Shown one piece after another: positions 33,766 to 56,107 of a DNA stretch of 64,000 nucleotides. The translations under genes and the position numbers were made by a program. The stretch spans positions 9,608,979 to 9,672,978 of the forward strand of contig CM049321.1 of NCBI GenBank assembly GCA_026874595.1. Direction: 5' to 3'. Within the stretch, counting starts at the first letter, position 1; every line of letters begins with the position of its first letter. The notes under the pieces are model-generated. The model worked only from the letters and a program-made list of their open reading frames with translations. It searched no databases and was not told the DNA's origin. Origin of the DNA: Sipunculus nudus. Its lineage: Eukaryota; Annelida; Sipuncula; Golfingiida; Sipunculidae.

Positions 33766-34420
33766 GTTACCTCCACCAATATTATAAAATATAAAAAATA
33801 AGGATATCAAAAATGTTCAAAGAAATCTTCACAACGATAACATGACGGACAATTTGATAAAACTATAGCGCTCACGTGTGCTGATAGCCCTAACAGTACC
33901 GATTTCCATGTTTGGGCCTAAGGTTAACCCCTAAAGTAGCCCAGTTAGTAAGAATTTAATGTTCGTAATAGGGCAATATCTAGGACATCTGGACAATATC
34001 TGGACATCTACTCATCTAACGGATTCTTGAAATGTCATGCTTGTCAAGTTTTATTGTAAAACCTAAATTCTTCAGTCAATTTCGCCTAGTGATGTCTGAA
34101 ACGGCGTGTTTTACTTTACTTTTTACTTAAATGACAAACAGCATTGCATCACCGAATGCCTGGAAGAGTAACCCATCAAACGATGGTCCGGATACTCCGA
34201 ATAATAATCCACAAAATGGCAAAAACACACGTTTATAGATAACACAAAAAAGACCCGCATGTATACAGGTGAACCAAACAACCCAATCCCATGTTAACAG
34301 ATAAGTGAAATTCAGTTTCATTGCTTTATTGTATTGGATTACTATTGTTATACTTTGTACGAGCAGCTGCCGCTCCCTTCATAACTGTGATGTTTTTTGG
34401 ACTTCATTGCTTTGACGTGA

Positions 34421-34557
34421 TCAATATCCGGGTGCTTGGACTTTTTTTTTATCCCCGCACCACTTCTTGTATTGTTTGTCCATCCCGGGAAGAGGACAGA
34501 TGAAGTACCGGTGGTACTCCCCGGGCCTGACCATAAATTCACATACAGTCGGGCTCA
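34421..34557 (-). pseudogene. Shisa-like cysteine domain exon, beta copy F
   Basis: On the minus strand a good acceptor (TTTACTTTGTTTTCAG) precedes an open frame of about 44 residues. It starts SPTVCEFMVRPGEYH, then RYFICPLPGMDKQYKK, WCGDKKK and ends APGY before TGA. The pattern C-x11-FxCP-x-CCG-x-CC seen in copy G matches the Shisa ectodomain (secreted or type I membrane proteins that bind receptors). Here the first Cys of CCG is Trp and the final CC is lost where a run of nine A stands, equivalent to an in-frame deletion. The frame is otherwise intact. No signal-peptide or membrane exon could be attached, so it may be a dead copy, or a living gene with unseen exons. Confidence 0.5.
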
Positions 34558-34689
34558 CTGAAAACAAAGTAAAATTTATCATGGGGCGGGATCGCCTCTA
34601 AAAATAAACGCGTTCAATTGTATGTCCTGGTATATTCCTTACAGGAATAACAATCACGCATTCTTCTTAGCATAACAACAAAGGGATGA

Positions 34690-35060
34690 AACAACTACTA
34701 CTTATGTTCCTAGGACTACTATTACAAATACTACTACTACTATACTGTTACTAATATTACTGTCACAACTACTAGAACTACTTCAACTACTACTACAACG
34801 TCTACTACTCATACTTTTCATACTTCTACTACTACTGTTACTTTACTACTGCTAATACTACTATAATGAATACTAATACTGCATCTGCTACTAATACTGC
34901 AACTTCTACTACTACTATATGTCTACTACTTCTACTGCTCCTACTTTTCCTATTTCTACTACTGTGACTACTACACTGTTTTTACTCCAGCTTCGACTGC
35001 TCCTGCCTCTTGTACTAGTACTACAACTACTTCTTCAACTTCTACTTCTGCTACAAAAAT
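34690..35060. repeat. Imperfect (CTA)n trinucleotide tract
   Basis: Long imperfect ACT/CTA/CTG triplet array. A shorter related tract lies at 50420-50570 in copy G. Leu/Thr/Tyr-rich frames over it are artefacts. Confidence 0.9.
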
Positions 35061-35439
35061 ATAACACCATCAACCAGAAAAAAAATAAAAAAATTCGGAA
35101 TCTAAACCCAACGCTGAAGAAACGAATTTTGCGGAGCTAATCAGTAAACATAATCCGGTCTGCATCAATGGAAGCTTTGTGTTCTTGGCCATGATTATGA
35201 CAACGCATATGCACAAGGAATAAATCTTCGAAACGAAGGCGATCTTCCGGATACTGGCAAGCAAGGAATTTTGAGCAGATTCTACGTTACAATTTACTAA
35301 GATGTCTAAATCATAGTAAGATTTGTTACAGCCGCGTTATGTTATAATAACCACAAATACCTTTAACGCTATACCTAGTGTCGCTATTGTGTGCAACATG
35401 AAGTATGGCGTAAAATTTGAAATTTGTTGAGAGAATTTT

Positions 35440-35680
35440 TAATAATAATAAAAAAAAAAAGAAATAAATAAGTAATCAATAATATTAATGATATTAATAA
35501 AAGACATTATAATAATAAAACAATAAATACAGTAATGATAAATAGAAAAAGTTATAGAAAATGGTTATAATAATGAATAAATATAATATTAACATAAAAT
35601 AATAATCATTAGAACAATAATGAATAATAATAATTATGATAATAATAATAGTAATAATAATACTAATAGAGTATCTAACA
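35440..35680. repeat. Imperfect (TAA)n tract
   Basis: AAT/TAA-rich stretch, matched at 52010-52160 in copy G. Confidence 0.85.
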
Positions 35681-35726
35681 TATCGAGATAAGTCCGCATA
35701 TATGGTAAGGATCAATACAAACTTAC

Positions 35727-35815
35727 ATCAGCGGTCCCTGATAGGTCGCTGTCTCCAGGACTCAATAGCATACAGCCGTCCCGACCTCGGCAGCTTCACC
35801 CATCTCGACTGCACT
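35727..35815 (-). other. Exon-like block b, copy F
   Basis: Conserved with 52238-52326 and followed on the minus strand by a good donor (GAT|GTAAGTTT). In the frame that would join the Shisa-like exon in phase it reads RWVKLPRSGRLYAIESWRQR and hits TGA one codon before the donor. May be untranslated or decayed. Distance to the Shisa-like exon is about 1.2 kb. Confidence 0.3.
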
Positions 35816-35939
35816 GCAGTTGGCCCCACTCAGAAACAGCGCTCATACACGAGCCAAGGTCACACATTGAAACATATCAATTGAATAATGTTATCAAATA
35901 TTTCACTTCAAGATTTAATTTAAGTAAAATTAGATAATT

Positions 35940-36125
35940 ACATTATCAGATATAGTACATATCTTACCACATATCAGATATCTATAATGTGTATATAATC
36001 GGATTTCATATATCTATATTGTGTGGCCTTATCAGATATGAGAGATATATAAGGATCTATGATCAGATATCATATCTATAATGTGTGTATGATCAGATTT
36101 CTGATATCTATAATGTGTGTATGCC
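35940..36125. repeat. Short tandem repeat of ATCAGATATC-type units
   Basis: Words such as GATCAGATATCATATCTATA and ATAATGTGTGTATG repeat every 45-60 bp. Related units occur at 52480-52640 in copy G. Confidence 0.7.
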
Positions 36126-36157
36126 ATATCTCTAGGTCAACGATAAAAAAATAAGTT

Positions 36158-37991
36158 ATCTCCTCCTATTCTCTAATAGTACCACGGTTGAGGTTGAGCT
36201 ACCATTAAAGAATTCCATACTAAGTGAGTTTCAGTGCGTTTCAGAAGCTCATAATGCCAAAATTATATCAGCCATTGCTTGTAAAAGCTGCGACTTATAC
36301 CCATTGCCTACTGATCTTTTTAAGAAGGTAACTCGCTTGCTTTGTTCATTGGTAAGTGCAATCATTAACAAGTCGTTAGCTAGTGGGGAATTTCCAGAGG
36401 ATTACAAGGTAGCATTATTAAATGGTCTGATCAAGAAACGTAATTTAGACCCAGAAATTCTGAAGAACTATCGACCTGTGTTCTGGAAAAAGCGGTGGCT
36501 TTACAGATTTGCAGATATTTGAAAAATAATGACTTGTTAGAACCATATCAATCTGCATACAGGAAAGGGCACAGTGCAGATACAGCTTTAGTACGTATTC
36601 AGAATGATATACTCCGCGCCCTTGGTCATAATAAGGCAGTTTTGTTAATCCTGTTAGATCTCTCTGCAGCTTTTGATACAATTGATCATGATTGTATGAT
36701 AAGAACACTGCAGCAACTTGGATTTACAGACACTGTTTTGAAATGGTTTTCGTCATTTCTGAGAAATCGTTCCCAAATTTGAAGATAAAGGCCAATAACT
36801 CAAGAGCAAAACAATTAAATTGTGGGATACCACAAGGCTCAGTCCTTGGACCTATTTTATTTACAATACATACATCATCCCTTGGTTCCCTTCTTCGTCA
36901 AAATTCGATCAACTATCATTTTTATGCAGATGATACCCAGTTATATGTAGCATTCAAATCTAGTGAACTTGACAGTACCATTCACCAGATGGAACTGGGT
37001 ATTTCAACTGTACAAAAGTGGATGAGCCAGCATCAATTAAAAATGAATGATGAAAAAAAAAACAGAAGCAATATTAATTGCACATAAACATTTGTTAAGA
37101 GAAATTGGTTTACCCACACTTCACATTGGCTTTCATCAAATTACACCATCATCGAAAGTAAGAAATATTAGTGTTATTTTTTATTCACATGCATCTATGG
37201 AAGCCCATGTAATGGCAGTCTGCAAGGCTTCATATATACATATTTGTAATATCACTAAAATAAGAAAGTTTGTGAACAGAGAGTCTTTGGAGCAGATAGT
37301 TCATTCTTTTATAACTTCTAAATTAGATTACTGCAATGCACTCTTGTGTGGAACTCCCTCATCATTAACAAATCGACTGCAAAGTATACAGAATGCTGCG
37401 GGGAGGATTATTAAAGGTGCTTCAAAATCAGAACATATTACTCCAGTTTTGTATCCTCTGCATTGGCTGCCCGTTGCGCAAAGGGTAAAATTCAAAATGT
37501 TTATTCTTGTGTATAAGGCAATAAATAATTTTAGCCTTAGGCCAGCAGCTAAAAACTTACTGGTCGTGCCTCTTTACCAAATCGCCCTGTGTACAAAATC
37601 GGGCATTCAGTGTTGTTGGCCCGAAACTGTGGAATGACCTACCAGATACTCTAAGAGAAACCACCAGTCTCTCAGAATTTAAAAGTAAATTAAAAACTTA
37701 TTTGTTCATGGAATATTTTTATGCCTAGTCATTTTGTATGATATTTTATACTATTGATAGTGAAATGTTTGAACATTTTAGTGGAATTATGGAAGTTTTA
37801 ACAGATAATTGAACTATTGACTTTTATATGTCTTATTTAATACTGTAAGCTTCTGAATGTAATATTTTAGTCAACTGGACTTTAATTTCATATTCTTACA
37901 ATGGTATGTTTAATGATTGCTGATTGTATTCTAGTTATGTAATAGCGTTTTAGAGCATGTATCATCTTGGATTTTACGCTTTATAAAATAA

Positions 37992-38046
<55 letters not shown>

Positions 38047-38048
38047 GG
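36158..38048 (+). mobile_element. 5'-truncated L2/CR1-type non-LTR retrotransposon
   Basis: Comparison with the empty site in beta copy G (about 52660-52730) places the left edge near 36158, after ATAAGTTATC, and the right edge after the (TTA)n tail at 37993-38045, before CGGGTACTTAGG. Only the reverse transcriptase and C-terminal part of ORF2 remain. The 3' end is a short UTR followed by a trinucleotide tail, typical of CR1/L2-like elements. No clear target duplication; some target bases appear lost. Confidence 0.8.
36190..37728 (+). pseudogene. Reverse transcriptase of an L2/CR1-like LINE, frameshifted
   Basis: The coding sequence passes through several frames: about 36190-36490, 36495-36782, 36780-37070, 37047-37580 and 37603-37728 (TAG). 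Motifs in order: EILKNYRPV, YQSAYRKGHSADTAL (RT block 2), LLDLSAAFDTIDH with the first catalytic Asp, CGIPQGSVLGP, FYADDTQLY with the catalytic DD, LDYCNALLCGTP, the ITPVLYPLHWLPVAQRVKFK stretch and LWNDLPDTLRE at the C-terminus. These identify the family. At least four frameshifts make it non-functional. The endonuclease and ORF1 are absent through 5' truncation. Confidence 0.9.
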
Positions 38049-39200
38049 GTACTTAGGCTAAAAAAGGCATATCCTAGGTTTTCTATGTATTTCATACACA
38101 ATTATATAGACATAAATTTCTTAAGGTAAACAGACAGAGTGACAGAAGAAGCGACAGAATATAGTTTAATCAAAAGTTTAATATCGTTAATGAAGCAAAA
38201 ATAAAATGAAGATAAAAAAGCGAACATTTAATGAACCCTCTACCTCTCAGATGATAAAAGACAATATAAAATAAACCGGCTATAGAATGATTTTTCTCAG
38301 ATCGTTTTCCTCAGGAAATGATACCGTTTTGCGTGACTCCGGCTCAAATACGGTATAGAACGTTTAAAACGTTTACAATTCTGGATATGACTAATGGCAG
38401 AGGGACAAAATATGACATTAAAGAAAATGTATTTTCCATTTTAAAATTTCTTCCGTAGGTATTTATTGGACAATTTATCGCACTATAGTTGTAAGTTTTA
38501 AGGAACAAGGTGTCTTGTCTTAGTATAATTAGTATTAATATGTGCTAGTGTCTTGATCTAGGCTATATTTACCTCTTAGAACCAAGGCACCAAATGCATT
38601 ACCGCAGCGCCCCGAACTCAATCTAATTATAAATCCATATGTTAACTCTCTTATATACAAATCTGATTGATGCATTTATCATTTATACGAAACTTTGATA
38701 TAGAACTATTTGGGAGTATGCCTGATGTTATTATAACTGCGGAATACTGCTTCCCTGTGGGTTGCGTCTTTCTATTGCTAAACCTCGCTTCACCAGAGCC
38801 AGTGTGCTCAACCGATGGTCTATAAATCAAATGTTCACAGTCACCGAGCAAGAAGCTTCTCCATGGGAAAATAAGGTTAAGGTCAAACATTTATTTAGAA
38901 TAAAAAAACTGTCACATATGACTAGAGCCAACTGGGATATATAATAAAAACGGTTGATAGATTAGCACACAAGAAGACCCAAATAAGCACGAATATAGAA
39001 TAAAATTTGAAATAGATAAGTAAACCCACACATCCCTACACCCTTTCCCTTTTTACAGTGTGTTTGTGTGTGGGAGGGGGATATAGGTAAGTGACTCTTT
39101 ACTTGAGTGAACGAATTACCCTTTTCTAATTGAGCGTCAACTCACGCCACACCTGGAATAAATTGTTTATGTTAAACAAGGAATCCGCCTTGAATCGGAT
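38049..39200. other. Beta copy F, non-coding stretch
   Basis: Aligns piecewise with 52740-53100 and 55240-55640. About 38650-38880 has no counterpart in copy G. No coding feature recognised. Confidence 0.4.
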
Positions 39201-39254
39201 GTTTTTCATTATGCAACAAAACTTAAATTATAATTTCCGTTTATTCGGTCTGAC

Positions 39255-39462
39255 CGTGGTGTTGTCAGTGTTAGGTCTCCCAAACCGGATCCGGATCCTC
39301 CGTCGTCTTGTCTCCGGAAGAACCCACGTGGAGAGCAGAGCGCCAAACCTGAGCTAGACGAACGGGATGGACGCTCCCTCTGACCGGACTGTACGGGCAG
39401 CAGGCCCTGCAAGAAAAGGTCATTATCTCCTTGGTCCTCGTCATCGCGCTCAGTCAGTTGCA
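39255..39462 (-). other. Exon-like block a, copy F (degenerate)
   Basis: GC-richer block conserved with 55714-55924. A possible acceptor (ACTTTCAG) is present, but the donor is GGTCAG instead of GGTAAG, the frame that looks most protein-like has a TAG, and there is a one-base gap relative to copy G. Probably a dead exon or a non-coding element. Confidence 0.3.
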
Positions 39463-42400
39463 CTGAAAGTAAAAGGTTATTAAAATATACATGGGCGGCA
39501 GTGTCGGGAGTGCGGATATAAACCCCCATTTTTAGCATTGAAAATAAGAAATGATTTACTTATGTCTTGAAGTGTGTGTGTTCATTATGGCCTTAAATTA
39601 TACTGTTTCGAAGATTACGGTTCATCACCTATGACCATTTTTGACAATTCTAGTAATACCGAGTTGAACGTTTTACATTACGTTATGCATAAGAAGGAAA
39701 TACAGACTTACCAGAAGGTAAAACAACCAAACATGATAGCATACACTCCCTTTAGGTGTAGCGGTAAAATCCCCTGGATAATGATGTGATTAGGTAAATA
39801 ATTTAATTTCTCAATATTTAAGAACGAATAACGGGCAGTCCAGGCTGAAACTAAACGTGCATGCTGGTACGAACCAATATAAATTCGGTGTGCCAGTGTA
39901 TGAAATTCAATTACTCTGCCGAAATTGTCATCAAAATAAAAGTTTTATGTCATAAAGTAAATTCAAACTCGTGTTTTGTTGTCAGTAATTTACATTTTTG
40001 TTAATGGCCATTAAGTCCACACAAATTACACACATCAAATAAACTTGGCGACAATGACTCTTTGCCAGTCCCATAATGCTTGAGGAACAGACACTCAAAT
40101 TACATTATCCCCGCCAAAGACCGTTAATCAATGGAAATAATACTGATATAAGTTCACCGTAAAAACAGGATCATTATCAGCGTTCTGGATTTTGTATTTT
40201 GGTCCCGTGAATTGATGCCTTGATCTGCAACTTTTCTATATACGGGCCATTGCCAAAGTCGGGTTTACACCGGTTTGTTAAAGACCGAGGCATTTTTAAT
40301 ATAAAAAGCGCTTGTATTCCAGGGCGCTATTATTATGAGTCCTCACTTTGTATACGTTATTACATGCCCATAATGCTATAGGATTGAACAGACCGATTTG
40401 TGTCGCCATCAGTACCACCAGGTTCACTGTCCTGGACCTGGTCATATTATTGAAGATGTGATAAAAATGCATCAGGTTTTAGTCTTAACCTTGAAGTACT
40501 ATCCAAGATGCTGATTCCCAATTGTCGCTTAATTTTGCACATGTCTACGCCTGCTTATTATTTTGACTTTGAATAATTTTACATTTGCAAAGCCTATTCC
40601 CTGCAACTGTTCTCTTGCAAGTAATCGTTAGGGGATGGGCTCACTCCGGTGTTCCATTGCACACACCTAGTTATATATATGTGTATTTTTTCTCTAACAA
40701 GGATCACATGTCTTCTTAGAATACACGATAATGTTTACATATTAACCTAATTATTCTTTATCATATACAGATATGGAAAGGTAGAAGGAGTATTCAGGTC
40801 AAAATGCTTTTAATACTTTTAACATGTATGAAACATCCATGGTTCTTGAAATCACATCTCCTGTTTCAGTACTTAAGTATGTATTGCCCTGTAATGCGCG
40901 TGGTGCTTCAAAGAAACGCAGGTGTTGACTTTTCACCATAACCTGTTCACCAACCCGAATGCACGAATAAGAAAAAAAAATGCTAATAATCTACCACCAG
41001 AAACACAAAGATTTTTTTTAAGTTTAAGGCCATAACATGTTCCGACGTAAAGAAAAAAACGTGTTTCCTGTGAAAAATTACGTCTCTCTATATTTGTTAT
41101 CTTTTTACAATAAAATGTTATGATTAAACTCAACTTTATCAGCATTTAAAAAAAAAGATTCTTATAGTGAAAGGATGTATTTTACCCAACGCTCATTTTC
41201 AGGTTTCATTTTTATTCTCTTTCAAGATCCCCTAATTAGGCAACTTACTGTGCGCGCAATCATCTTAAAAGAAGGAAACACGTTGTATAATATTTTTTTT
41301 AAGTTTTACAGTAAAACAACATGGAAACAACACTGGGCATTTGATTAAGGTGTGGTTCTTCGCTAGAGATCGATAACATTTCCTTTAAAAAAATACACAC
41401 TTGCGTCCTTGCTACCCTATCCAATATCATTTTACATTAATATAACTTATGAATCGCGATGAAAGCAAAATATATGATCATGTCTTGGTCATTTAAGGTA
41501 TTTTAATAATACAACTGACGGTCTTAAAAAGGCGTTTCCGTTTCTTTAAAATGTTAAGTCATATCAATAGTGGCATTTTACGATATCCGACGTCTATTAA
41601 CTAAATATAAATTTGAACATTTCATAAAAAGTACAGTTAACACAGGCTGTTCGTTTTGTTTATATCCACATGATTGTAACCTGCTAAACTTGCAAAGTAA
41701 ACCAAACCCATAAAACACGGACATGTGGTGCCAAGGTTTTATATACGGCACTTAGCAAATACTGGCCTTCAGCGTCTACACGTATGCAATAAACTACATT
41801 CAGTAATTTTTTAAATGTTGTTTGTCAATATGAGATTATATGCCGTGACAAATATCTTGTAGATAGGACTGAAACGTCGAATGGAGAATAAGCCATCAAT
41901 CTCATATTATATGGATGATGCAGGTTATTATATTTCTTTAGATTAACAACGTTAAAAATTGAATGTCACATGAAGGCTGCTATGCTTTTTATACATTGTA
42001 CATCCAGTGAAGGTCCCTTTGAAAGAAATATGTGTCCCTCCTCGTCCTTGATACAAAAGCAAGAACCTGAACACTGTTACAAGAGTAAATCGTTTATAAC
42101 TGGGTGCTCATAATTACATTTTGGTGTCCCACATAAAGCATCATACAATACTGAACGTTCAAATTTCAGAGCTAGCTGGTAACGTCTATAAAATGCAATA
42201 TAAATGTCTTGTCCGTACTTTTTCTTTATAAACAAAACTGTTGTCTATCTAGACGACATTGTTTAGACGTCCCTGGATGCCATATCTCAGAAACTAAAAT
42301 GGGATTACTTAACCTTCCTGGCGTCCAGTGCATTCGATATCTTATATGGATATATATTACGCTTGCTTCTAGATAGTCGAGCAAATGTTTCAGTAAAAAA

Positions 42401-43500
42401 TTCCATTGCCCTGTCATACGAAAATGTAGTAAATTCTTCTTGGGCGGGTTTACTGGTAGGGTATTGGGACAATAACATTTATCTGTACAAAACGATGTTC
42501 ATATGTAGAACGGTTATTTTCTCTAAGAACACATGAGATGTCCTATTAGTATTATATCAGGCGTATCTATCTCTGCAAAGAATGAACGATTTTCCTTCGG
42601 TTTTATTTGGGCATGTCAGATGCTGTTATAAATGTGTTGGTCTGCCATGATACATAGATTGAACGGCCGGCTCAAGAAAACCGATAAAACGATTGCTGCC
42701 TCGGACAGGAAGTAATTACAGGAGACCTCACCGAGCAAGATTGTTGTGTTTTTCCAAAGGTATTTCTGGAAACTGGTAAAGAGACTTTTTTCCCAATAAG
42801 ACCAATTTCTATGGAAAAAGTAAATGCACATGATATTCACTAAACATTTAATATATCAGTTTTGTAGTTTTGGTTCCGTTTCCACTCCATGTTGTCAGGG
42901 ATACTCCATGTGTCCCTTTATATACAATGCGCTTAGATATTAACCAGAAGAGTGGATCACACATCATTCTGCTGTGTCCTGATATGTGGTTCCAATGGCA
43001 CCCCGATTTGACCTGGTAGCATTCCATTGTGTCTCGCTATTATCTGGATGTGATATGTTCTAATGTCCCGAATGTCTCCTCTCACCTCACTTCCGATATC
43101 ATCCTGAAGTTTCCCTATCGTATAGTCGATGTTACATGGTTGGTCATTAGGGATAGCGCCGGCGACATATGAGAGACATCCTTGGGATAATTTTGGTATA
43201 GGTCAGTAGAAATAAAGTAGTTGTACCACAGCATTAATATCAAGTAACACCTTTCAATGGTAGAACTGGGTTTCTCATAAATACGAGATTTTAATCAACC
43301 ATATTAAATTCATACTGCTACATAATCAGGTGCCATTTAATGGCGCATATTAACTATTTTTTTTATATTTTATGAGAGCCTATATATCTTAACATGCTGG
43401 GTCAACATGTGTAATCTAGCATTATTGGTAAGTGTATAATTAACCGAATTATAAGCCACAGCAAATTTATTGATTTAAAATCGTTCTTTCCTACTTTTAT

Positions 43501-43609
43501 ATGTAAATATTCAATGACCTTATAATCTTATATATATTCCTGGGATAAAACCTCTCAATGCAAATTTGAGCATGTTAAAAAAATTAATTTTATATATAAA
43601 GCAACACAT

Positions 43610-43667
<58 letters not shown>

Positions 43668-43927
43668 CCATTACCTCAGATATAATGGAAACACTTAAAA
43701 AGTATGATACAAAGGGACAGCAGAAAGAACTTAAGTTACTGTCCTGAAGATAAAATGATTAAATGGCACGTTCCTTTCAGTATTGTTTTAATCACAATTT
43801 AGCCTGATACAAATATAATGATGTAAATATTCAATGACCTTATAATCTTATATATATTCCTGGGATAAAACCTCTCAATGCAAATTTGAGCATGTTAAAA
43901 AAATTAATTTTATATATAAAGCAACAC

Positions 43928-43977
<50 letters not shown>

Positions 43978-44051
43978 CCATTACCTCAGATATAATGGAA
44001 ACACTTAAAAAGTATGATACAAAGGGACAAAATATATACAAAGCAACACAT

Positions 44052-44083
<32 letters not shown>

Positions 44084-44355
44084 TATATATAATTTCCATT
44101 ACCTCAGATATAATGGAAACACTTAAAAAGTATGATACAAAGGGACAGCAGAAAGAACTTAAGTTACTGTCCTGAAGATAAAATGATTAAATGGCACGTT
44201 CCTTTCAGTATTGTTTTAATCACAATTTAGCCTGATACAAATATAATGATGTAAATATTCAATGACCTTATAATCTTATATATATTCCTGGGATAAAACC
44301 TCTCAATGCAAATTTGAGCATGTTAAAAAAATTAATTTTATATATAAAGCAACAC

Positions 44356-44391
<36 letters not shown>

Positions 44392-44535
44392 CCATTACCT
44401 CAGATATAATGGAAACACTTAAAAAGTATGATACAAAGGGACAGCAGAAAGAACTTAAGTTACTGTCCTGAAGATAAAATGATTAAATGGCACGTTCCTT
44501 TTAGTATTGTTTTAATCACAATTTAGCCTGATACA
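43501..44535. repeat. Recently amplified ~320-bp tandem array with hairpin and (TA)n
   Basis: Four near-identical units: 43501-43820 (320 bp), 43821-44029 (3' truncated), 44030-44248 (5' truncated) and 44249-44535. Each has a (TA)n tract of different length followed by the perfect inverted repeat TTTCCATTA-CCTCAGATA-TAATGGAAA. Identity outside the TA tract is close to complete, unlike the diverged surroundings. Non-coding. Confidence 0.95.
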
Positions 44536-45009
44536 TCAAAAGTATTCTTATTCACAAGTAAATGATACAGAATCAATAATTATAACATCCAGATGAACTA
44601 GGTGAGGAAATCAGCGACAAAATTCCAACCCCCAGACGGCAGTGATCAATGGACTGATATGTTATAATATATAAATAGAAGACCAAGATAGTACTCTAGG
44701 AGCACTGAACAATTATAAACCGGAAGCCTACAAGTCGCTATATGTAGTATTTGCAATGTATAAATTAACCATAAAAAATAATTAAATGGCTTCAGAAACT
44801 CGATGGCCCAGAGCCAGTTGTCATATATGGATAGTTTTATCTAGAGAAGTCTTAAATATGGTCATTTTCACTGTTTACTCTGTATACTCAAGATACGGGC
44901 AATCGTAATCAATTTATTTTTTTTTGTAAAGAATTCAAATTTGAATTAATTATTTTTTACATAGATCGTATAAATAGTTATTGTAACAAATTGATGCACT
45001 CGCCATACT

Positions 45010-45175
45010 TTGAGTGGCGTTAAGTAACGTCTAGACGTTGAGGAAATCGAAGAACCCAGAGAAAACCAGCGGCCTTCGACGGGCCACTACATCTCACTCT
45101 CAGAGCCACGCCGGGGATCAAAACCGGGCCTGCAGAGAACCGAACGCTTTATCTGTCGACCGTTCATGTCAGTGT
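45010..45175 (-). mobile_element. tRNA-derived SINE remnant in copy E
   Basis: Minus-strand GGTTTTGATCCCCGGCGTGG resembles a tRNA box B. An upstream GACAGATAAAGCGTTCGG may be a decayed box A. Orthologous to the block at 17000-17170. Confidence 0.45.
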
Positions 45176-46185
45176 CACCTGAATAAAAATTCAAATTTTA
45201 AACATAATGAACAAATCAACTTTGCTTTGCTTTGATATTTGGTGACAAATACTGAGTGACGCTTTTAGCTAACTACTTCAAACTAACATATATTGAAACC
45301 ATCATTCTGTGACTGACATGCAGTATCAATCTAAACTCTAAATTAATTATAATAATAAACTCACATTTGTAGGATATAAATCAGTGCTTATTTTGAACGG
45401 AAATTACTTTCTTTCATTTGCTCAAAAGGAAGAAATAGTATGATATCCCCCTTTCTGCCTCCTGGTTGAAAAAAAGTGAAGGAATTGACACAACTGCCCC
45501 TTTGGCCTCGCAGTAATTTTGGTTCCATGAACCGCATGCAGTGAAGAAATTTTTCCTGGACAGATTCATCATTTACCGTGGAAGCTCCTCTTGGTAATCT
45601 TAAGCAAATTTAGTCTTCAACTAACCCTAATGGCATAATTTCTGATGGAGGTAAATAAGGCGTTATTTTTATGGTTTCCCCGGCATTCGATTATTTTTGT
45701 GGCTTTCGTGTTAATGCAGGTTCTATAGCTACCCGTGTAACTGTGTACGGGGCAGAATAAAAAGATTCCATCTATATCAAATAACAAGACAAAAACTATT
45801 TTTTCCATCTTTCTTTTTTGCATCACGATGCATCTTTTATGTGTTTTGCCAAAATTGTATCTTTACGACATTCCGCGGTATTAGATCTTTTTTACGACAT
45901 CGACATCGACATCTTGCTGTTGTGATAAAAAGTTTTTTCTTCCATGTTTATTATTTTTAACATCACGTGTTGTTATTATGTCTCATATATCCCTGTAACC
46001 TACTTCATAAAAACATGGTATTAACATTTTAGTTCTTATGAAATTATATTTTTGTTACTCCGACACTTAAGTCTGATTCACTTTATAAAATAAGACAATT
46101 TATAGATCTTATTTTTTGCCGACGAACAAAACAAGTGCATCTTTAATTTAAACTGTTACGAAGTCTAATTGCTCAGGGGAAACAT

Positions 46186-46262
46186 TGGGCCGATCTCGGA
46201 TTCGAACCCATGTTGGGGGCGCACAAGTCCGGCGTACCGACCGATTCGCAACAAAGTTCGGT
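46186..46262 (-). mobile_element. tRNA-like sequence (SINE head or tRNA pseudogene)
   Basis: Minus strand reads GAATCGGTCGGTACGCCGGA (box A and D-arm-like), then about 18 bases later ATGGGTTCGAATCCGAGAT, a perfect box B. The anticodon-stem pairing is poor and the acceptor stem does not close well, so a functional tRNA is unlikely. Confidence 0.5.
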
Positions 46263-46929
46263 CCGCTTTGATGTTACCCCTAACATTAAGAATAAGGATA
46301 TCGTTAGCAAGTGGTAATTTGTGGTTACACATTGATTAATACAGTTTTCACCAGGTGTCTACTGCCTAAGCCTCAAGCTATAATGATGAGGAAAGGTATT
46401 AGTTGGCTTTATCTCCCTCTTTTCTCTCCGTATCGTTCCCAACTGGACTATGTATACGATACGTATTATCACAAGAGAACAAGTCCAGCACATTGGAGGA
46501 ACTGTTGGCGTCCCCCACCCCCACCCCAACCGCATACCTTAGGCCAATGAGACTCTGAAGCCGGAATATTCCCTGGTATTTTTTAATACCCAAATTGATT
46601 ATAAAGGCTGATTTCTTCAATAAAGATTGAAAAAAAAATCCACACAGTAGAGGCGGATAACCGACCAAACGAAGAACAAACGTGAAGAACTAAAGAGACC
46701 TTAAGTAGCTCTAACATTTTCACGAGTTTTACCGTGATATAAACTGCTGCGTTAACATTTGTTGAAACCCTGACAGCAATCGGGAAATCTTAAACGGTGA
46801 TTTTGCGATATGACCTAGCACGATTTGACGGAGTGCAGCAAGCAATGCATCACTGTCAACCCCGCACCTTACTGAGCTCTGTTGATAAACATAGCTATGT
46901 GCTCTGTGACATTCAGGCCGGGCCAGGCC

Positions 46930-46945
46930 GGGGGGGGGGGGGGGG
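46930..46945. repeat. Poly-G tract of 16
   Basis: Sixteen consecutive G following GGCCAGGCC. Confidence 0.95.
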
Positions 46946-47054
46946 CTCTGCCGCTTGATGCACTAGACACTGAATGAAACTTGCTACTGTTACTAGTACT
47001 ACTAATAATACTTATATAATGTCACTTACCAACATATATTAAAATGAGTATACA

Positions 47055-48789
47055 TCATGAATATATGTATTCCATATATTTTGTCCATATTTCATCTACA
47101 AAAGTGTACATCTTAGGGGGAAGAACTCTTTTCCTTGTTTTCGCCGGGCATGACGTGGATCTTCCCAGCTTTAGACAGAAGTTAGTTCTCTATCATTTTT
47201 TTTCGGTTCCGGTCAAGTACGCCAAGCATTGTTCTTCTGCAGTACTCCTTTGCGCTAAACGCAATTCGTTTGTCATGATATACCAGGAAGGCATTGTAAA
47301 ATGATTCAACGTAATGTGTGTCTCTAAAATGCACATAGTCTTATGGATGGCATTTTTCAAAATTACTTCAGCTTCTGGTTGTGTAATTTTAATTTTGGAA
47401 GGTTTATATAGGGGGTCATTAGGACATGGTGAATCAGAGTGGCATGACCCGTGTTGGTCTTTATAATGATGTACAATATTATCAAGTGTCTGGCGCAACA
47501 TGTATACTGACCCCTTGCAGGTTTTGATTGCCCAATAACAAGGAGTTTTGATAGAGGCTGATTTGTCTGACAGTTCTTCATACCAGGTTACTCTATGTTT
47601 TACTTTCGATCCGTTCGATATATATTTTACTTGTTTTGATATGCCTTGTGTAAGGTGCCATGTATCATTAGCATTAGTTACATCTGGGTGGTAAGCTGAC
47701 ATAAATTTATTGATGTTTTCATTGCGGTCATGGGCATGGACATTAAACTTCCTCCCACTTGTCTTTTGAATACTTGTACAGTCTCTTGGTCCCCACAGTT
47801 TCATGGCGCTGACTGCACATATCATCCTCCCTTGCTACAATTTCTACTCTGATGCATTTTTTTTTGTTTTGTCCCCCAGTGCAACAATATCACTACACTC
47901 TGCATTTTTCCTCCACTGATGTCGTGTATCTGTTAAGATGTCAATACCATGATATGGTAATACTACATATTCCAACTCTGCTGCCGTCATTGCTTGCTCA
48001 TTGCATTTTCTTGTTTTTGTACAGCTTCAGTATGAACAGTGCAGAGTTGTTCAAAATAGTAATTGGAAGGCGTCCCGATAGCTGCATTTTTACAAAGTCT
48101 GTCATACTGGACTTTTCTTAGACCTGAACATTACAAACTATGGCACATCTTCATGTAAGCTAGATAACTTCCACCCTCAATATGTGGTGATGTGTCCCAT
48201 GAGACCTGGTGATGTTGTGCACAGGTAAAGTTCATCTTGCCTACATGTGAAATTCTTGTAACGTCTTTAATTTCAAGGGGCTCTTTAAACTCTAAATAAT
48301 GGTTTTGAATGTGTTGAACAATATGTGACGCTGCTTACAGTGTAGTCGAATAAAATTCATGCCCAGTTTCTTCTTTTGTGCAGTACTGGTAGGCTGGAAT
48401 GGCATGACTATGGTGGGGTACATTTTTCTCTTGGGACTGTTGAAAGTCACTGCTACAGTACTGGGAAAACATAGTTTTACACTTGAGTAATCTGTTCTCC
48501 CAAGGTCAATTTTGCTTTGTCGATCAGATTCAACAGAGCAATTTTCTTCTCTTGAGAATCTGCATATATTTTGATATTTGCAGTGATCGCAGGTTTTCCT
48601 TGTTTCCTTCTCACATTCCTTTGTTTAATCATTTTACCAGAATCTTATACACGCTTACGACCATATTTTTTTTATTCCGTGCACATCCTTTAGTTTACAT
48701 GTCTCAGCTGAAATCACACCAGTTACATCCTTCGCTGTGACTCCTGGACCTTCCTCTGTCACTGGTATGTCTGAATCCTCCGTAGCCAT
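47055..48789 (-). pseudogene. DDE-type transposase-like gene, frameshifted
   Basis: Reads toward lower coordinates from ATG at 48789 to TGA at 47055-47057, about 580 codons with several frameshifts and stops. Order of recognisable pieces: a TCDHCKYQNIC cysteine stretch (near 48580), GKMNFTC and SWDTSPHIEGGSYLA (near 48200), ILTDTRHQWRKNAECSDIV (near 47930), HAHDRNENINKF and NANDTWHLTQG (47740-47660), LDNIVHHYKDQHGSC (47480-47440), then, only after a frame change near 47330, THYVESFYN with HDKRIAFSAKEY, and after another in the A8 run at 47197-47204 the end piece TFVDEIWTKYMEYI. Asp, Asp and Glu in these motifs are candidates for the catalytic triad. I recognise the family from invertebrate genomes but cannot name its superfamily. 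Confidence 0.65.
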
Positions 48790-48984
48790 ATTCTTTCAAT
48801 ATAAGAGATTGAGGGTAATATTACTACATATAATTGTGAATTTGCTAAATGGTAGTTTACAGCAGCTACAATTAACACTTTTTTTATCAGGGCCGTCAAG
48901 CCTTTGCTTGACATTTTGTTTGGGACAATACATTAAATAATTAAGAGGTGACATACAATCTGCAAAATTAGTCATTTAAAAGAA

Positions 48985-49240
48985 GACGCCGGCGATGGAA
49001 CAGATACATCACTTGGTATAGCGTTCTTACATATCAGTTGAGTAACGTGTTATTACCACAGTATAAGAATAACGGAACGCTAAGCATTGGTGGATACTGC
49101 ATTTTTCTTTTACCATCTTGGGCAGATATTGATATCCTTTGACAGTCTAAAGCAAATTTAGTCCTTAGTGGCCTTTCCTCTTGGTTTTTAGGTAAATACA
49201 GGCGCATAATTAGCTCCCCGTGCAACCGTGTACGCAAGCG
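48985..49240. repeat. Alpha-type fragments right of the transposase element
   Basis: CGCCGGCGATG and ACCACAGTATAAGAATAACGG (49054) match 27324 and 27394 in copy B. TTTAGTCCTTAGTGGC and CGTGCAACCGTGTACG match pieces at about 17615 and 17752 in copy A. A short alpha remnant. Confidence 0.6.
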
Positions 49241-49260
49241 CCCCCCCCCCCCCCCCCCCC
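49241..49260. repeat. Poly-C tract of 20
   Basis: Twenty consecutive C followed by ACACACACA. Confidence 0.95.
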
Positions 49261-50134
49261 ACACACACAAGAAATATTAGGTCAAGGGTTCCACTTTATT
49301 TGCTTATTAGCTTCTGAGGCAAGAGGATTTCTTGTTATTTTATATTCAATTTGATTATATTGCTTATTTCCTCGAGGAAATTTGTAAAAGTAAAAACTCA
49401 ACCCAGCAGGAGGTAGATGAGGTACGGAATCAATTAAGAACACACAAGAAGATCCAGCAAAGAAATAGAAAGACCGTCCAACGGTCACATCCATGTTTAC
49501 AGGTAATCCGTATAAGGTAAACAAAAATGATCACGGAATATCCTCACAACGATAACATAACGGGCTATTCGATGAAACTAGGGCGTACACGTGTGCAGAT
49601 AGCCTTTACAGTACAGGTATCAATTTTTACGTTAACCCCTGAACTGGCCGGGTTGATAAGATTTTAATGTTTGTCATACGGCAATATCTGGAAAAAAAGT
49701 TCTCCCAACTCACGTAACGGATTCTCGAAATATCATGCTTTTCCAGTCTAAAGTAAATAATAAACTTTTTTGTCAGTTTCGTCTAGTGGTATCTGAAATC
49801 GTATGTTTTACTTTACTTACTTTACTCACAAAGAACCATTACAACATAAGAAGACCTAGAATATCTTACTAATATGTTACTAAAAATATAGTCCGCAGTC
49901 TCCGCATAATAATCCTCATAACGACAAAATTCACGTTTACATATCACAAAAAAAGAAGCACAAATGGACCCGCATGTTCACAGGTCAGCCAAACAAACTA
50001 ATTCCATGTTAACAAATAATCGAAATTCTATTTCACTGCTTTATTGTTTTGTTTTACTATTGATATATTTTGTACGAGCAGCAGCCGCTCCCTCATCAGT
50101 GCGATGTCTCTGGGACTTTATTGGTGTGACGTCA

Positions 50135-50291
50135 TCAATATCCAGGTGCTCGGACGTTCTTGTTGTTACAGCAGTGTTGGATTTTATCCCCGCAGCACTT
50201 CTTGTACTGTTTGTCCATCCCGGGTAGAGGACAGACAAAGTACCGTGGTACTCCCCGGCCCGGACCATGAAGTCACACACTGTGGGACTCA
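50135..50291 (-). pseudogene. Shisa-like cysteine domain exon, beta copy G
   Basis: Minus-strand acceptor TTCTCTCCCTTCAG precedes SPTVCDFMVRAGEYH. There one base is missing relative to copy F (CACGG against CACCGG at about 50245). Read past this gap the frame gives YFVCPLPGMDKQYKK and CCGDKIQHCCNN, retaining both Cys pairs, then APGY and TGA at 50135. This is the fuller Shisa-type pattern. Over 36 aligned codons I count 13 substitutions against copy F: 10 third-position, 3 first-position and none at second position. The gap is either a true inactivating mutation or a sequence error. The exon may instead end at 50156 at a weak donor (AAC|GTCC). Confidence 0.5.
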
Positions 50292-50644
50292 CTGAAGGGA
50301 GAGAACTGTTTATCAATTGGCGGGGTTGCCCCTAAAAATAAACCCGTTCAACTTTATGTACTGGTATATTTCGTAAAGCAATTCGAATCACGCATTATTG
50401 TAAGAATAACAAAACAGGAGTAAAACTACTACGACGACTGATGCAACTTTTTTCTACTACTACTACTAATGTCCCTACTACTGCTTTTACAACCACTGCT
50501 ACTACTACACACAACTGCTGCTAATTCTTCTGCAATTGCTACTTCTACTACGACTGGTTCTACAATAAAATACCAAGGAGTTTATACGACTGGAGTAACA
50601 AGTCCCAGCGGCCCAGGCCAGCCCTGACACTTAATTGATATTAG

Positions 50645-50739
50645 CACTCGACATCCCCATCAACCCTACTGTGCGCCCATTGTGTGAAGGTGTCAAACAC
50701 GGCACTTGCACTGCCTTTGATCCTTACAGAGTGTCACAG
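50645..50739 (+). other. Exon-like sequence inside the TIR element
   Basis: Preceded by TGATATTAG and followed by a consensus donor CAG|GTAAGT. The open frame between reads LDIPINPTVRPLCEGVKHG then TCTAFDPYRVSQ, 31 codons with codon use unlike the AT-rich neighbourhood. I do not recognise the protein. It may be a captured gene fragment. Confidence 0.35.
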
Positions 50740-51138
50740 GTAAGTGATGGTCATTACGACAAACATGGCTAGCCAGAATAACAAATCCAGTTGCTGAGCA
50801 GTATGTTCCTGGAGTAACATGAACTTAAAACATGTATGTGCAGACAGTTTAAGTTATTTAGAATTATGCGCACGAAATATATTCAGGTAGAGAAAGCGTC
50901 GGGAACACACTTTGGGACAAATGCAGCCATTCATCGTTTATATGTTCTGTCATATACGACGCATCACTGATGAGAAAATGTTCAGTTTCTTTGAATAAAT
51001 GCTTAATCTTCTTTAGTTTCTTAAGTATCAATTGTCATACTCTAAACTGATACTGATTATTCACGAGGTTTATAATAATCCTCTGATGCAGATATTTTAA
51101 AGCACTTATGAGCGCAAGACCATGAATTTAAGTAATTA

Positions 51139-51303
51139 GTAGCGGTGGTCACATTCGGTTGCTTGACAGGTATTATCGCCGTGTGCTTCTTCGCCAAGCG
51201 ACTGATCTGGCGTTTTATGGCAAGGAAGCGGTCTCATGCAGGGATATCCACATTGTTTTTAATGAATTGTTATATGCTTAATTTGAAAATTCGAAACTCA
51301 TAA
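51139..51303 (+). other. Frame with membrane-segment-like sequence inside the TIR element
   Basis: The frame begins VAVVTFGCLTGIIAVCFFAK, a plausible single membrane span, followed by RLIWRFMARKRSHAG, a basic cytoplasmic-like stretch, and stops at 51301-51303. It does not join the exon-like piece at 50645-50739 in phase with the acceptors visible, so the link is speculative. Confidence 0.25.
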
Positions 51304-52009
51304 ATCAAAAACCAAATGTTTAACTTACGTTATGGGAAAATTGGTGGAGTTTCAGAAACGAACGAATGCTTCCGAAGGGCGGTAATTCACGGACCGCGGG
51401 TCTCATCAGCGGCATCTCTTTGTGCCATGGATTAACTAGGTTGCTGCCCCGTCGGGCACATGGGACACGGACCGGGCTTTGACTTTTGACTCCAGTCCTA
51501 TAAACTCCTTGATAATGCCAACAACCAGAACAATATTTATAATAATTCGGGATTTAAACCCCGCACTGAAGTCACTAATTATACGGAGCTAGGCAGTTAT
51601 TCAATTCACGTAATTCTGATCTGGTTATTTAATAATCCTGGTTGAGAACACGCGGCATCCATTGATCCATTCCCACAAGGAGTACATTTTCATAGCGAAG
51701 GCGGTCTTCTAGCGAGCACGGAATGTTCAGCAGATTGAAAGTTATACTTAACCAAGAAGCATTAATCGTAGAACGAGGGGTTCAGGTGTTTATATGTTTT
51801 CAGTCTAAATATTATCATGAGGGGAGCATTTCAAATAACAACAAATACCCTGATCGGTGAACCTAGTGTCGCTATTGTTTGCAACACGCCGAATGGCGTT
51901 CTATTTGAAAATGGCTAGAAGATTAGTGAATAGTAATAAAATAATTTAATCAATAAACAAACTAATATTAAAATGATCATAATAAAACAATAATTACAGT
52001 AATGATAAA

Positions 52010-52160
52010 TTGTTAGAGTAAAATAAAATAAATAATAATAATCATAATAATAATAATAAAATAATAATAATAATAATAATGAATAGATGATGGTAATAAT
52101 ATATATATGTATATATATAAATAATAAGGGTAATGGATTATAATAATAATTATTTTTATT
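52010..52160. repeat. Imperfect (TAA)n tract
   Basis: Counterpart of 35440-35680, with a short (TA)n at about 52100-52119. Confidence 0.85.
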
Positions 52161-52237
52161 ATAAAAATAACAATACTAATTACAAAATCTAACATATCAA
52201 GATAAGATATATTCGATAATAATAAACACACACTTAC

Positions 52238-52326
52238 ATCCGCGGTCTTTGACAGGACGCTGTCTCCAGGACTCAATACCATACAACTGTCCCGACCTCG
52301 CCAACTTCACCCATCTCGGTACTGGA
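52238..52326 (-). other. Exon-like block b, copy G
   Basis: Acceptor TAACTTTTACTTCCAG and donor GAT|GTAAGTG bound 89 bp. The frame that fits the downstream Shisa-like exon reads PVPRWVKLARSGQLYGIESW then RQRPVKDRG and is open in this copy. Against copy F, changes are only moderately biased to silent sites, so coding status is unsure. Confidence 0.35.
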
Positions 52327-53289
52327 CTGGAAGTAAAAGTTAGGCGGGCAGTTGGCCCCACTCAGAAATCGCGCTCATACACGAGCCAAGCTAATCCACT
52401 GACTAACGTTATCAAATATTTCACTTAAAGATTTCATTTCAGTAAATTAGATAAATTACATAATTAGAAATAGTATTTATCTTACCAGATACCAAATATC
52501 TATAACGTGTGTATAATCAAATATCAGAAATCTATAGTGTGTGCCTTATCAGATATGAGATATAAATAACGTGTCTTTGATGAGATATTATATTTATGAT
52601 GTGTGTATGATCAGATAGCAGATATCTGTAAAGTGTGCACGTGATTTCTCCAGGATAGTGATAACAAATAAGTACAAAAAAAAAATAAAACAGATCTAGT
52701 CTGAGTCGGGTTATTAGGTTCATCCTTGCTAAAAGAGGCATAAACTAATTTTTCTATGTATTTTATACACAATTATATAGAGATAAATTTATTAGGACAA
52801 ACAGACAGACTGACATAAACAGTGGCAGAATATAATACAAGCGACAGACGAATTTTGTAAAATGAAGCAAACATAAAATCCTTGAACGAAAAAGGGCGAC
52901 ATTTACTTAATCCTCTTTATCGAGTGTTACTAGAAAATTTCAAGAGGACTGCAACCCCTGCCAAACGGGAAGGTGAGAAATGTGTACACACCTTTACACA
53001 CCCCGTCACAGTCACAGAACTTACCAAAACACTTGATGCAGGTTTAATCAGAGAAACGATCTGCTGCCAAAACGGAAAGTGACTTATAGGATGTAACTTC
53101 TATTTAATAAGAAGTAGAACCAGTTGAACTTTTCGAGGAATATTCGCATGTGAAATGCAAAATATTTTCTATAAAACAATTCATAACACAAGCCCTTCAA
53201 ATATGCATAATACGCCCGTTGTGTAACTGTGACCTCATTTAACAATCTTGAATTTTGATGAGAATGTATAAAGGTGACAAACGCTATTG

Positions 53290-55240
53290 GTAAGTATGTT
53301 TTTAAGCCCAGCTGACTGTAAAAATTTCCATGAAAAGTCTGCTTGGAGACGACCTGAATGGAGGTCTCTGTTACCCATATCCTTTGAGCTATGGGGCTCA
53401 GAAGTTCTCCCCAAATATTAAAAAAAAATGATTCAAAAGCTCCAGTATCTAAACAACGAATGTATTATCATCCTGATTTCTTGCATGTTTATTAATGATG
53501 GTGTTTCATCAGTTCCCACAGATTGGTGGCGCCACCTTGTTTTTAGCTCAGCTGGCTGTAAGTCATCTGAGCTATAGCGATCACTCTTAGTCTGCCGGCC
53601 GTCCGGACATCCGGCCGTCTGCCCGTTAACAAGGCACGAATCGTAACCGCTGGACCTGGAATCCTCTCACTTTACATCCAGAGAGGTACACGAAAAGCCT
53701 CCTTGGAAATCTGGAATTAGGTCTCTGTTACCCATATTCTTCAAGCTATAGGGCTCCGAAGTATCCCCCCCCCCCAGAAAAATGAAAAAATTGATACAAA
53801 AATTCAAGTATCTGAACAACTAATGCATTAATCACCATGATTCTTTGCATGGATATTGATCATGGAGTGTTTCATCAGTTTCTGCAGACTGGTAGCGCCA
53901 CCTATATTTTTTTCGATTCTTTACAATTTTTTTTCTCTATTTTTGAGACCTTAAAAGATGTGGTCATCTCTTACCAGGGCACAAGTCGTAACCGCTGGAC
54001 ATAGAATCTTCTGTCTCGACATGAAGGGAGGCCCATGAAAGTCTTCTTGTAAACCTGGAATTAGGTCTCTGGTACCCATATTCATCAAGCTATGGGGCTA
54101 CGAACTTATGACTTGATCACCATGATTCTTTGCATGGATATTCATAACGGAGTTTTTCATCAGTTTCTGCAGACTGGTGGTGCCACCTGTATTTTTTTTT
54201 TTATTTTTTACGATTTTTTTTCTCTTTTTTTGAGACCTTAAAAGATGCGGTCATCGGTTAACAGGGCTCAAATCGTGACAACAAGACCTAGAATCTTCTC
54301 ACTTTACATCCAGAGAGGTACATGAAAAGTCTCCATAGAAACCTGAAGTTAGGTCTCTGTTACTCATATTCTCTAAACTATTGGGCTTATAAGCACCCCC
54401 CCCCCCCCACCCATCATAATTAAACATATGCTACCAAAGCAGGGAACAAATCATAAACATTGGATCTGGAATCTTCTAACCTAAAATTCTGGAAGGTCTA
54501 TGAAAATCTCCTTGGAAACCTTAAATTGGTACACAGTGAACTATATTCTCAGAGTTTTTGGGGTATGTTTGGGCACCCTAGAAATAATACAAAATACACA
54601 CAAATTGCCAGATTCCTCATGAAAGGAAGGTTAGTTTGTCATCAGATTTGTTGTGCTGATGGGTCTTGATGAACTTAAGCTTATATGCATGAACAATGAT
54701 GCCACCTACATTATCTTAATTAGTTGTCTGTGCAAGGACATATTGTCAACATGTCAGTCGGCTGAGCGTCATGGCCCACAGGTCACTTGTTTTAGTTTCA
54801 TGCGAATCAATATGATTGTTGGTAAGTCACCATGATGCCATAAATGTTTTGTGACCTCTGACCTTATTAAATATGCATCGATTTTGCTAGAAATCGAAAA
54901 AAAGCGATATATTATATTGATTAATATTGATTAATATATTAAGATGAAAATAGTCGTATTCCTCGTAAGTTAACGCGGAGACACCACAAAGTAACCTTGT
55001 GACATCTGACCTCATATGCTGGTATTTTTTTTTATAATTATAAATATAACAAAATCATTCAAGCGTGACCAAAACTCAATCAGCTCTGGAGACCCATCAG
55101 ATACACCTTCTACTATAATTCGTAGTAGATCCGAGTAAAACATTCTGAGATAAAATTGTTTACGGCCCGATGGACGGACGGCTACAGGGAAGGAGCTGGT
55201 CGATAAAGCCCCCGCTCCGCTGAGGCGGGGATAATTAGTA
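53290..55240 (+). repeat. ~2-kb bivalve-type repeat with 290-360-bp internal units
   Basis: Internal units are marked by GGTCTCTGTTACCC-like words at 53363, 53720, 54064 and 54352, with a fifth partial unit near 54490. A GTCCGGACATCCGGCCGTC-rich head (53590) and a GATGGACGGACGG tail (55175) are followed by the hairpin CCCCGC-TCCGCTGAG-GCGGGG. Copy F has no counterpart, so it was inserted or expanded after the beta duplication. Confidence 0.65.
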
Positions 55241-55713
55241 TGTACATGTGATTGTATCTTACTCTGTGTTATTTTAACCGCTCAGAACCAAGGCATCGAA
55301 TGCATTGGCGCACCGCATAGAACTAGACCTGATGAAATATTTTGATGTTAAATATCGTACATTCAAGATATATTTGTATATGACAAGAGCAAACTGGGAA
55401 TTTCAATAAAAACCGTCGACAGTTTAACACAACGGAAGACCAAAGAAAGTACTCATATAGAACTAAATTTACAAACATATAAGCCTACTGTGTGTGTGTG
55501 TGTGTGTTTGGGGCGGGGGTTATAGTGAAATTGGTCTTTAAATAAGCAAATGAACTACCCATTGCTAAGTGTGCGTTTCCTCGCCGTCAGTCCAGCGTTT
55601 AAATCACGACACATATGAAGACAATTGTTTAAGTCAAAATTGGATCCGCCTTTAATTGTTTTTTAAACATGTAACTAAAATAAAATGTTAATATTCCGTA
55701 TATATGCCCTTAC

Positions 55714-55924
55714 CGTGGTGTCGTCCGTGGCTTTGGTCTTCTGAACCGGATCCGAATTCTCCGTCTTCCTCGACTCCGGAACAACCAACGTGGAGAGCGG
55801 GACGCCAAATCTGATCGAGATAAACGGGATGAACGCTCCCTCAGACCGTACTGTACGGGCAGCAGACCCTGCAAGGATTGGGCAGTGTCTCCCTGTTTCT
55901 TGTCATCGCCCTCAGTCAGGTGTA
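55714..55924 (-). other. Exon-like block a, copy G
   Basis: Minus-strand donor CACG|GTAAGG is good. Two acceptors are possible (ATGTTCAG at 55925 or CCAATCCTTGCAG inside at about 55868). With the inner acceptor the frame reads EGAFIPFISIRFGVPLSTLV then PESRKTENSDPVQKTKAT. With the outer it is Arg/Ser-rich. Substitutions against copy F do not favour either frame, so function is open. Confidence 0.3.
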
Positions 55925-56063: not shown

Positions 56064-56064
<1 letters not shown>

Positions 56065-56106
<42 letters not shown>

Positions 56107-56107
56107 T

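What the first reader, a model, noticed from the sequence alone, without database searches (positions are those of the whole stretch)
34421..50291. Duplicated Shisa-like exon with a clear coding signature in two segmental copies
The two minus-strand exons (34421-34557 and 50135-50291) share a strong acceptor and a C-x-FxCP-x-CCG-x-CC pattern. In my hand alignment of 36 codons, 10 of 13 substitutions are third-position, none are second-position, and 9 are silent. That is hard to explain without past purifying selection. The domain does not look like the neighbouring sequence and belongs to no gene otherwise visible here. It may be a lineage-specific Shisa-like gene family expanding by tandem duplication.
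Basis: partly seen in the sequence, partly recalled or inferred. Interest (0 to 1): 0.7.

Follow-up and report, generated by a model that had tools for sequence, protein, structure and literature searches.

The report
Decaying secreted Shisa-domain gene array
The two exons are the last exons of two damaged copies of a four-exon gene predicted to make a secreted protein with a Shisa-type cysteine domain; two apparently intact copies lie about 450,000 bases away, so this looks like a small animal gene family being duplicated and lost.

Summary
The two minus-strand exons are real, have the stated boundaries, and show past purifying selection: 17 substitutions in 42 codons fall 3/1/13 by codon position, dN/dS 0.12. 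They are not orphans. Each is exon 4 of a four-exon gene whose other three exons also lie in the window, in order, same strand. Two apparently intact tandem copies about 450 kb away have open frames of 182 and 183 codons: signal-peptide-like start, acidic stretch, Arg/Tyr/Ser-rich basic region, Shisa_N-type domain, then a stop. One of those two exons passes Pfam Shisa_N (27.3 bits, cut-off 22); the family profile matches seven other Shisa-type exons of this genome (98.2%). Both window copies are damaged: A lacks the start codon, has stops, shifts and a lost cysteine pair; B has one single-base frameshift inside the domain. Two further remnants lie just past the window. Seven of seven other Shisa-type exons have a splice donor soon after the domain; 0 of 4 family copies do, and no transmembrane exon was found. 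So: a variant predicted to be secreted, not a canonical Shisa. Function, expression and species are undetermined.

The parts
56287..56350 (-). Copy B exon 1: ATG and signal-peptide-like exon ([21 protein letters not shown]), donor GTAAGT; intact
   Evidence: tblastn with the paralogue's exon 1, E 4.7e-9 in the window; boundaries
55714..55924 (-). Copy B exon 2: acidic start then Arg-rich basic region, acceptor TTCAG, donor GTAAGG; open
   Evidence: (E 0.007-0.15, weak); genome-wide search with it finds only copies A-D
52238..52326 (-). Copy B exon 3 (PVPRWVKLARSGQLYGIESWRQRPVKDRG), acceptor TTCCAG, donor GTAAGT; open
   Evidence: tblastn E 1.5e-6 with paralogue exon 3; boundaries and phases
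50135..50291 (-). Copy B exon 4: Shisa-type domain and stop, with a one-base frameshift between GEYH and YFVCP
   Evidence: the part after the break matches the paralogues at E 1e-15 to 4e-16
39712..39773 (-). Copy A remnant of exon 1: no ATG at the homologous place, in-frame TAA, donor GTAAGT kept
39255..39462 (-). Copy A remnant of exon 2: a one-base and a two-base gap against B shift the frame between them; donor GTCAGA
35727..35813 (-). Copy A remnant of exon 3: two bases shorter than B, TGA near its end in the homologous frame
34421..34557 (-). Copy A exon 4: Shisa-type domain, third cysteine replaced by Trp, 21-base deletion removing the second CC; stop kept
33798..40432 (-). Extent of the copy A duplicated segment (five separate aligned blocks to 49512-57039, 70-77% identical)
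   Evidence: self-comparison
49512..57039 (-). Extent of the copy B duplicated segment
   Evidence: self-comparison

Best explanation
The exons are the terminal exons of two tandem, now damaged copies (A and B) of a four-exon gene. Shown from sequence in the apparently intact copies G1 and G2: exon 1 a signal-peptide-like stretch, exon 2 an acidic stretch then an Arg/Tyr/Ser-rich basic region, exon 3 a short linker, exon 4 a six-cysteine Shisa_N-type domain followed within about ten residues by a stop. Inferred: the mature protein (about 160 residues, pI about 10, charge about +20) is secreted and soluble; the Shisa domain is a small disulfide-bonded module held by selection, while the basic region varies more freely, as in extracellular-matrix or gland secretions where a charged low-complexity tract binds a surface or polyanion and the cysteine module gives the fold or partner contact. 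Copies arise by tandem duplication and are lost by mutation: in this array A, C and D are pseudogenes and B is probably a young one. The gene model is well supported (about 0.9); the matrix or secretion role is only the likeliest guess (about 0.35). The confidence below is for gene model, family and decay, not for the role.
For: All four exons found in order and on one strand in A and B. G1 and G2 splice to 549 and 552 bases in frame with GT-AG junctions and no internal stop. Shisa_N: G2 exon 27.3 bits, cut-off 22; family against seven other Shisa-type exons of this genome, 98.2%, E 3.8e-14; phmmer to solved Shisa-3, E 0.047, weak. Selection on exon 4: A-B 0.117, G1-G2 0.158; exon 2 of G1-G2 0.753. 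7 of 7 other Shisa-type exons have a GTAAG or GTGAG donor soon after the last CC, 0 of 4 family copies do (A's last CC is deleted). A hydrophobic exon in phase follows in L031, L032, L035 and L036; L033 gives a doubtful one; L034, L037 and the two family loci give none (about 1.5 kb scanned each). Past residue 30 the highest 19-residue hydropathy is about 0.5 in G1 and G2. Genome-wide, G2 exon 4 has G2, G1, B and A as its four best matches of 14, and B-type exon 2 finds only A-D.
Against: No transcript data and no outside species. G1's exon alone, both window exons and both full-length proteins are not listed for Shisa_N, perhaps through biased composition. Exon 4 dN/dS between the two pairs is high: G1-A 0.58, G1-B 0.415, G2-A 0.734, G2-B 0.592, so selection was weaker or shifted between the lineages, or silent sites are near saturation. 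The fourth and fifth genome matches are not far apart (A 51% identical, E 2.3e-7; L031 49%, E 7.6e-5). B's single frameshift could be an allele or an assembly error. The genome tool calls its counts lower bounds.
Confidence: 0.85

Rival explanations
1. Copy B is a working gene: the single frameshift is an allele of the sequenced individual or a sequencing error, so the window holds one live and one dead copy.
For: Start codon, open exons 1-3, the six splice-site dinucleotides and the rest of exon 4 of B are intact; A-B exon 4 dN/dS is 0.117.
Against: The frameshift lies inside the conserved domain in the assembly held; the neighbouring copies A, C and D are clearly broken.
Confidence: 0.25
2. 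The product is a soluble decoy or antagonist: the Shisa domain still meets the partners of membrane Shisa proteins, but in secreted form.
For: Domain conserved within each pair, transmembrane part apparently absent. [quoted passage not shown]
Against: No partner known; the basic repeat region is not explained by it.
Confidence: 0.15
3. The family is a canonical transmembrane Shisa whose transmembrane exon was missed, and the apparent stop lies in an alternative terminal exon.
For: The domain agrees with other Shisa-type exons of the genome and so does the phase of the entry intron in the six of seven where it could be read; the downstream scan was short and also missed L034 and L037.
Against: All four copies stop at the same place (RAP or QAP plus two residues), with no donor after the last CC where 7 of 7 other exons have one; no hydrophobic exon found within 1.5 kb of G1 or G2 exon 4; AATAAA follows the stop in G1, G2 and B.
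Confidence: 0.07
4. The coding signature is chance or a transposon-borne ORF.
For: The window holds transposon relics.
Against: Open multi-exon paralogues; low copy number; third-position excess P = 3.4e-4.
Confidence: 0.01

Closest known systems
Shisa family (Shisa_N, Pfam PF13908)
   Same: Six-cysteine domain with FxCP, CCG and YCC elements; signal-peptide-like N-terminus; domain exon entered in the same intron phase as in six of seven other Shisa-type exons of this genome, read by eye.
   Different: Domain at the C-terminus behind a basic region, stop close after it, no transmembrane or proline-rich part found. Not filed as a canonical Shisa.
DUF2650 (Pfam PF10853)
   Same: Weak match over the CC...CC half (E 0.0024 for the G2 exon).
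   Different: Below its cut-off (17.9 against 22.9 bits).
Repetitive low-complexity secreted proteins such as shell-matrix proteins (recalled, not tested)
   Same: Signal peptide, charged repeat tract, cysteine module, tandem paralogues.
   Different: No sequence comparison was made; nothing is known here of tissue or species.

Membership tests
Shisa_N domain (PF13908) | Score over the curated cut-off | tested here: met
   Met by one of four family exons: G2, 27.3 against 22 bits. Not listed: window A and the B piece after the break, G1 exon, full-length G1 and G2.
Shisa_N domain (PF13908) | Homology to accepted Shisa domains by profile comparison | tested here: met
   hhalign 98.2%, E 3.8e-14, against seven exons of the same genome, six of which pass the Shisa_N cut-off; L031 does not (13.1 bits).
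Canonical Shisa protein | Cysteine pattern C*C*CC*C*CC*C (as worded in PMC10531659, passages) | tested here: not met
   G1 and G2 have six cysteines, C*C*CC*CC, and so do the seven other Shisa-type exons within the stretch aligned.
Canonical Shisa protein | Signal peptide | tested here: inconclusive
   Hydrophobic N-terminus, best 19-residue window about 2.0 from residue 7; no signal-peptide predictor was available.
Canonical Shisa protein | Cysteine-rich domain at the N-terminus | tested here: not met
   Domain is C-terminal in the G1 and G2 models.
Canonical Shisa protein | Single transmembrane segment | tested here: not met
   None past the N-terminus in the spliced models, none found about 1.5 kb downstream; models not checked by transcripts.
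Canonical Shisa protein | Proline-rich C-terminal region | tested here: not met
   The stop follows the domain within about ten residues. The same paper finds a formal proline-rich domain only in zebrafish Shisa-4, so this feature is loose.

The most novel reading that the evidence does not exclude
A transmembrane Shisa gene was converted into a secreted one by loss of the splice donor after its cysteine-rich exon, so that translation runs on to a stop in former intron, together with gain of a basic repeat exon between signal peptide and domain; the new secreted family then multiplied and decayed by tandem birth and death.
Probability: 0.4. Interest if true: 0.5.

Novelty: new variant of a known kind. 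Interest (0 to 1): 0.4.

Why it matters
It turns an apparent orphan exon into a complete gene model and points to a Shisa domain outside its usual transmembrane adaptor setting. If transcripts and relatives confirm it, the array is a clear case of a membrane-adaptor module reused in a secreted basic protein, with open and broken copies side by side. Six searches of the held open-access library showed no report of such a family, but only listings were seen and the lists were capped: 20 of 353 papers; 20 of 20; 15 of 423; 4 of 4; 8 of 1,032; 2 of 2; a paper could be listed without the word shisa. The one mollusc lead, PMC5549309 (passages), reports Shisa-like annotations over-represented in mussel gills and says nothing in those passages of a secreted form. 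Most subscription papers are not held.

Tried and rejected
Rejected: exon belongs to no gene (upstream exons found); chance or transposon ORF; exon 2 read in the collagen-like GPTG frame: that frame ends in a stop in G1 but is open in G2, and it is rejected because the ATG and length of exon 1 fix the other frame; the substitution pattern of exon 2 (11/7/12 by codon position) does not decide. Led nowhere: taxon by molluscan haemocyanin family PF14830 (no match, but the tool's control also rang nowhere, so uninformative); Pfam on the full-length proteins; byssus lead (the word match was a place name). The Pei and Grishin paper on Shisa-like proteins is not held. Structure prediction was not run. 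Three weak matches (L038-L040) were not pursued. The whole-genome census of PF13908 did not complete, nor were searches with exon 3 of B or G1 exon 2.
Full report
Observation. The window is C16:9608979-9672978 of an unnamed 1.43-Gb genome. Both reported exons are present with the stated boundaries on the minus strand. Two codons at B's frameshift, seven deleted in A and the stop were left out. Exon 4 is 119 of 136 identical, the rest of its block 525 of 701. Across all four exons the A-B differences by codon position in B's frame are 24, 18 and 39, but most of the signal is in exon 4; exon 3 shows none (7, 3, 3).

What it belongs to. A DNA search found a third place, whose exon reads VPTVCNNIYVNGTYHRYFVCPLNNMNAQYKKCCGTTNQYCCNNFNLRAPSH and then a stop and passes Pfam Shisa_N, 27.3 bits against a cut-off of 22. 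Its surroundings showed a second copy in tandem and, upstream of each, a signal-peptide-like exon and an exon rich in Arg, Ser and Tyr. With a third short exon the two genes, G1 (C16:10103485-10106269) and G2 (C16:10108367-10116091), splice to 549 and 552 bases, open throughout, all introns GT-AG, all phases fitting. From exon 4 of B to exon 4 of G1 is about 447 kb. Used as queries, these exons find exons 1-3 of both window copies in the expected order and strand: B at 56350, 55924 and 52326, A at 39773, 39462 and 35813. B's exon 2 was first only a weak match (E 0.007 to 0.15) and is supported by position, phases and splice sites.

State of the copies. A lacks the start codon, has an in-frame stop in exon 1, a one-base and a two-base gap in exon 2, a two-base gap in exon 3, a stop near the end of exon 3, a cysteine-to-tryptophan change and a 21-base deletion of the second CC in exon 4. 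B keeps the start, open exons 1-3 and its splice sites, and is broken by one single-base frameshift in exon 4. Copy C (exon 1 near 76718, exon 2 in two pieces, exon 3 near 74519; numbering continued past the window) has no ATG at the homologous place and a stop in exon 2; its exon 4 was not found, though DNA matching the 3' flank of exon 4 is still there. D (about 100290-100500) keeps parts of exons 1 and 2. Genome-wide, B-type exon 2 gives 5 matches: A, B, D and C twice; it does not reach the exon 2 of G1 or G2, so this census covers the B type only. G2 exon 4 gives 14 matches at E up to 10: the four family exons are the best, seven are other Shisa-type exons (L031-L037), and three (L038-L040) are weak and were not pursued. 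The tool calls such counts lower bounds.

Comparison with other Shisa-type exons here. Six of the seven (L032-L037) pass the Shisa_N cut-off, L031 does not (13.1 bits). The profile of the four family exons matches the seven at 98.2%, E 3.8e-14. Read by eye, six of the seven have an AG acceptor followed by two bases and then the frame of the domain, as the family does (L035 could not be read), and seven of seven have a GTAAG or GTGAG donor within about 14-35 bases after the last CC; none of the four family copies has one (in A the last CC is deleted). A hydrophobic exon in the right phase follows in L031, L032, L035 and L036; L033 gave a doubtful candidate; L034, L037 and both family loci gave none within about 1.5 kb. 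The scan is crude and its negatives are weak. With the stop at the same place in all four copies and AATAAA after it in G1, G2 and B, the family most likely lacks a transmembrane segment.

How it probably works. Shown: architecture; conserved domain within each pair (exon 4 dN/dS A-B 0.117, G1-G2 0.158) and a loosely held basic region (G1-G2 exon 2 0.753; exons 1 and 3 0.149 and 0.406); basic charge about +20 and pI about 10 past residue 22. Against a simple picture: exon 4 ratios between the pairs are 0.415-0.734 over four comparisons, so the two lineages have diverged with weaker or different constraint. Inferred: secretion, disulfide fold, and a role at a surface or in an extracellular material. 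A signalling decoy is the main alternative. Neither is tested. Pairwise dN/dS on 20-80 codons is rough, and A-B divergence includes an unknown span of decay, which would bias the ratio upward.

Limits. [quoted passage not shown] its own results find no signal peptide in Shisa-9b and a proline-rich domain only in Shisa-4 (PMC10531659, passages). The family here has the domain with six of those eight cysteines, as do the other Shisa-type exons of this genome within the stretch aligned, but not the N-terminal placement or the transmembrane segment. It is therefore filed as a Shisa_N-domain variant, not as a canonical Shisa.

Noticed in passing
window 36692-37084 (+): Reverse-transcriptase fragment (Pfam RVT_1, E 8.2e-15) of a retrotransposon lying between exons 2 and 3 of copy A.
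   Followed up: partly
window 47193-47831 (-): ORF with a weak, below-cut-off match to Mutator-like transposase (20 against 26.5 bits).
   Followed up: no
window 53328-54400: Internally repeated stretch between exons 2 and 3 of copy B, related to a larger one downstream of G2 (C16 about 10121450-10125990) and to a stretch about 151 kb past the window; not listed by the tandem-repeat finder at score 150.
   Followed up: no
window 43624-44443: Tandem repeat with TA-rich units, 428-base period, 1.9 copies, 96% matches.
   Followed up: no
L006:4449-4748: C-type lectin domain exon (Pfam Lectin_C, E 8.3e-8) about 3 kb upstream of G1; two further lectin-like stretches nearby gave no family at E 0.001.
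   Followed up: partly
window 26035-27108 and 32390-33389; 16830-18051 and 44850-46007: Further diverged direct repeats about 70-74% identical, outside the gene copies.
   Followed up: no
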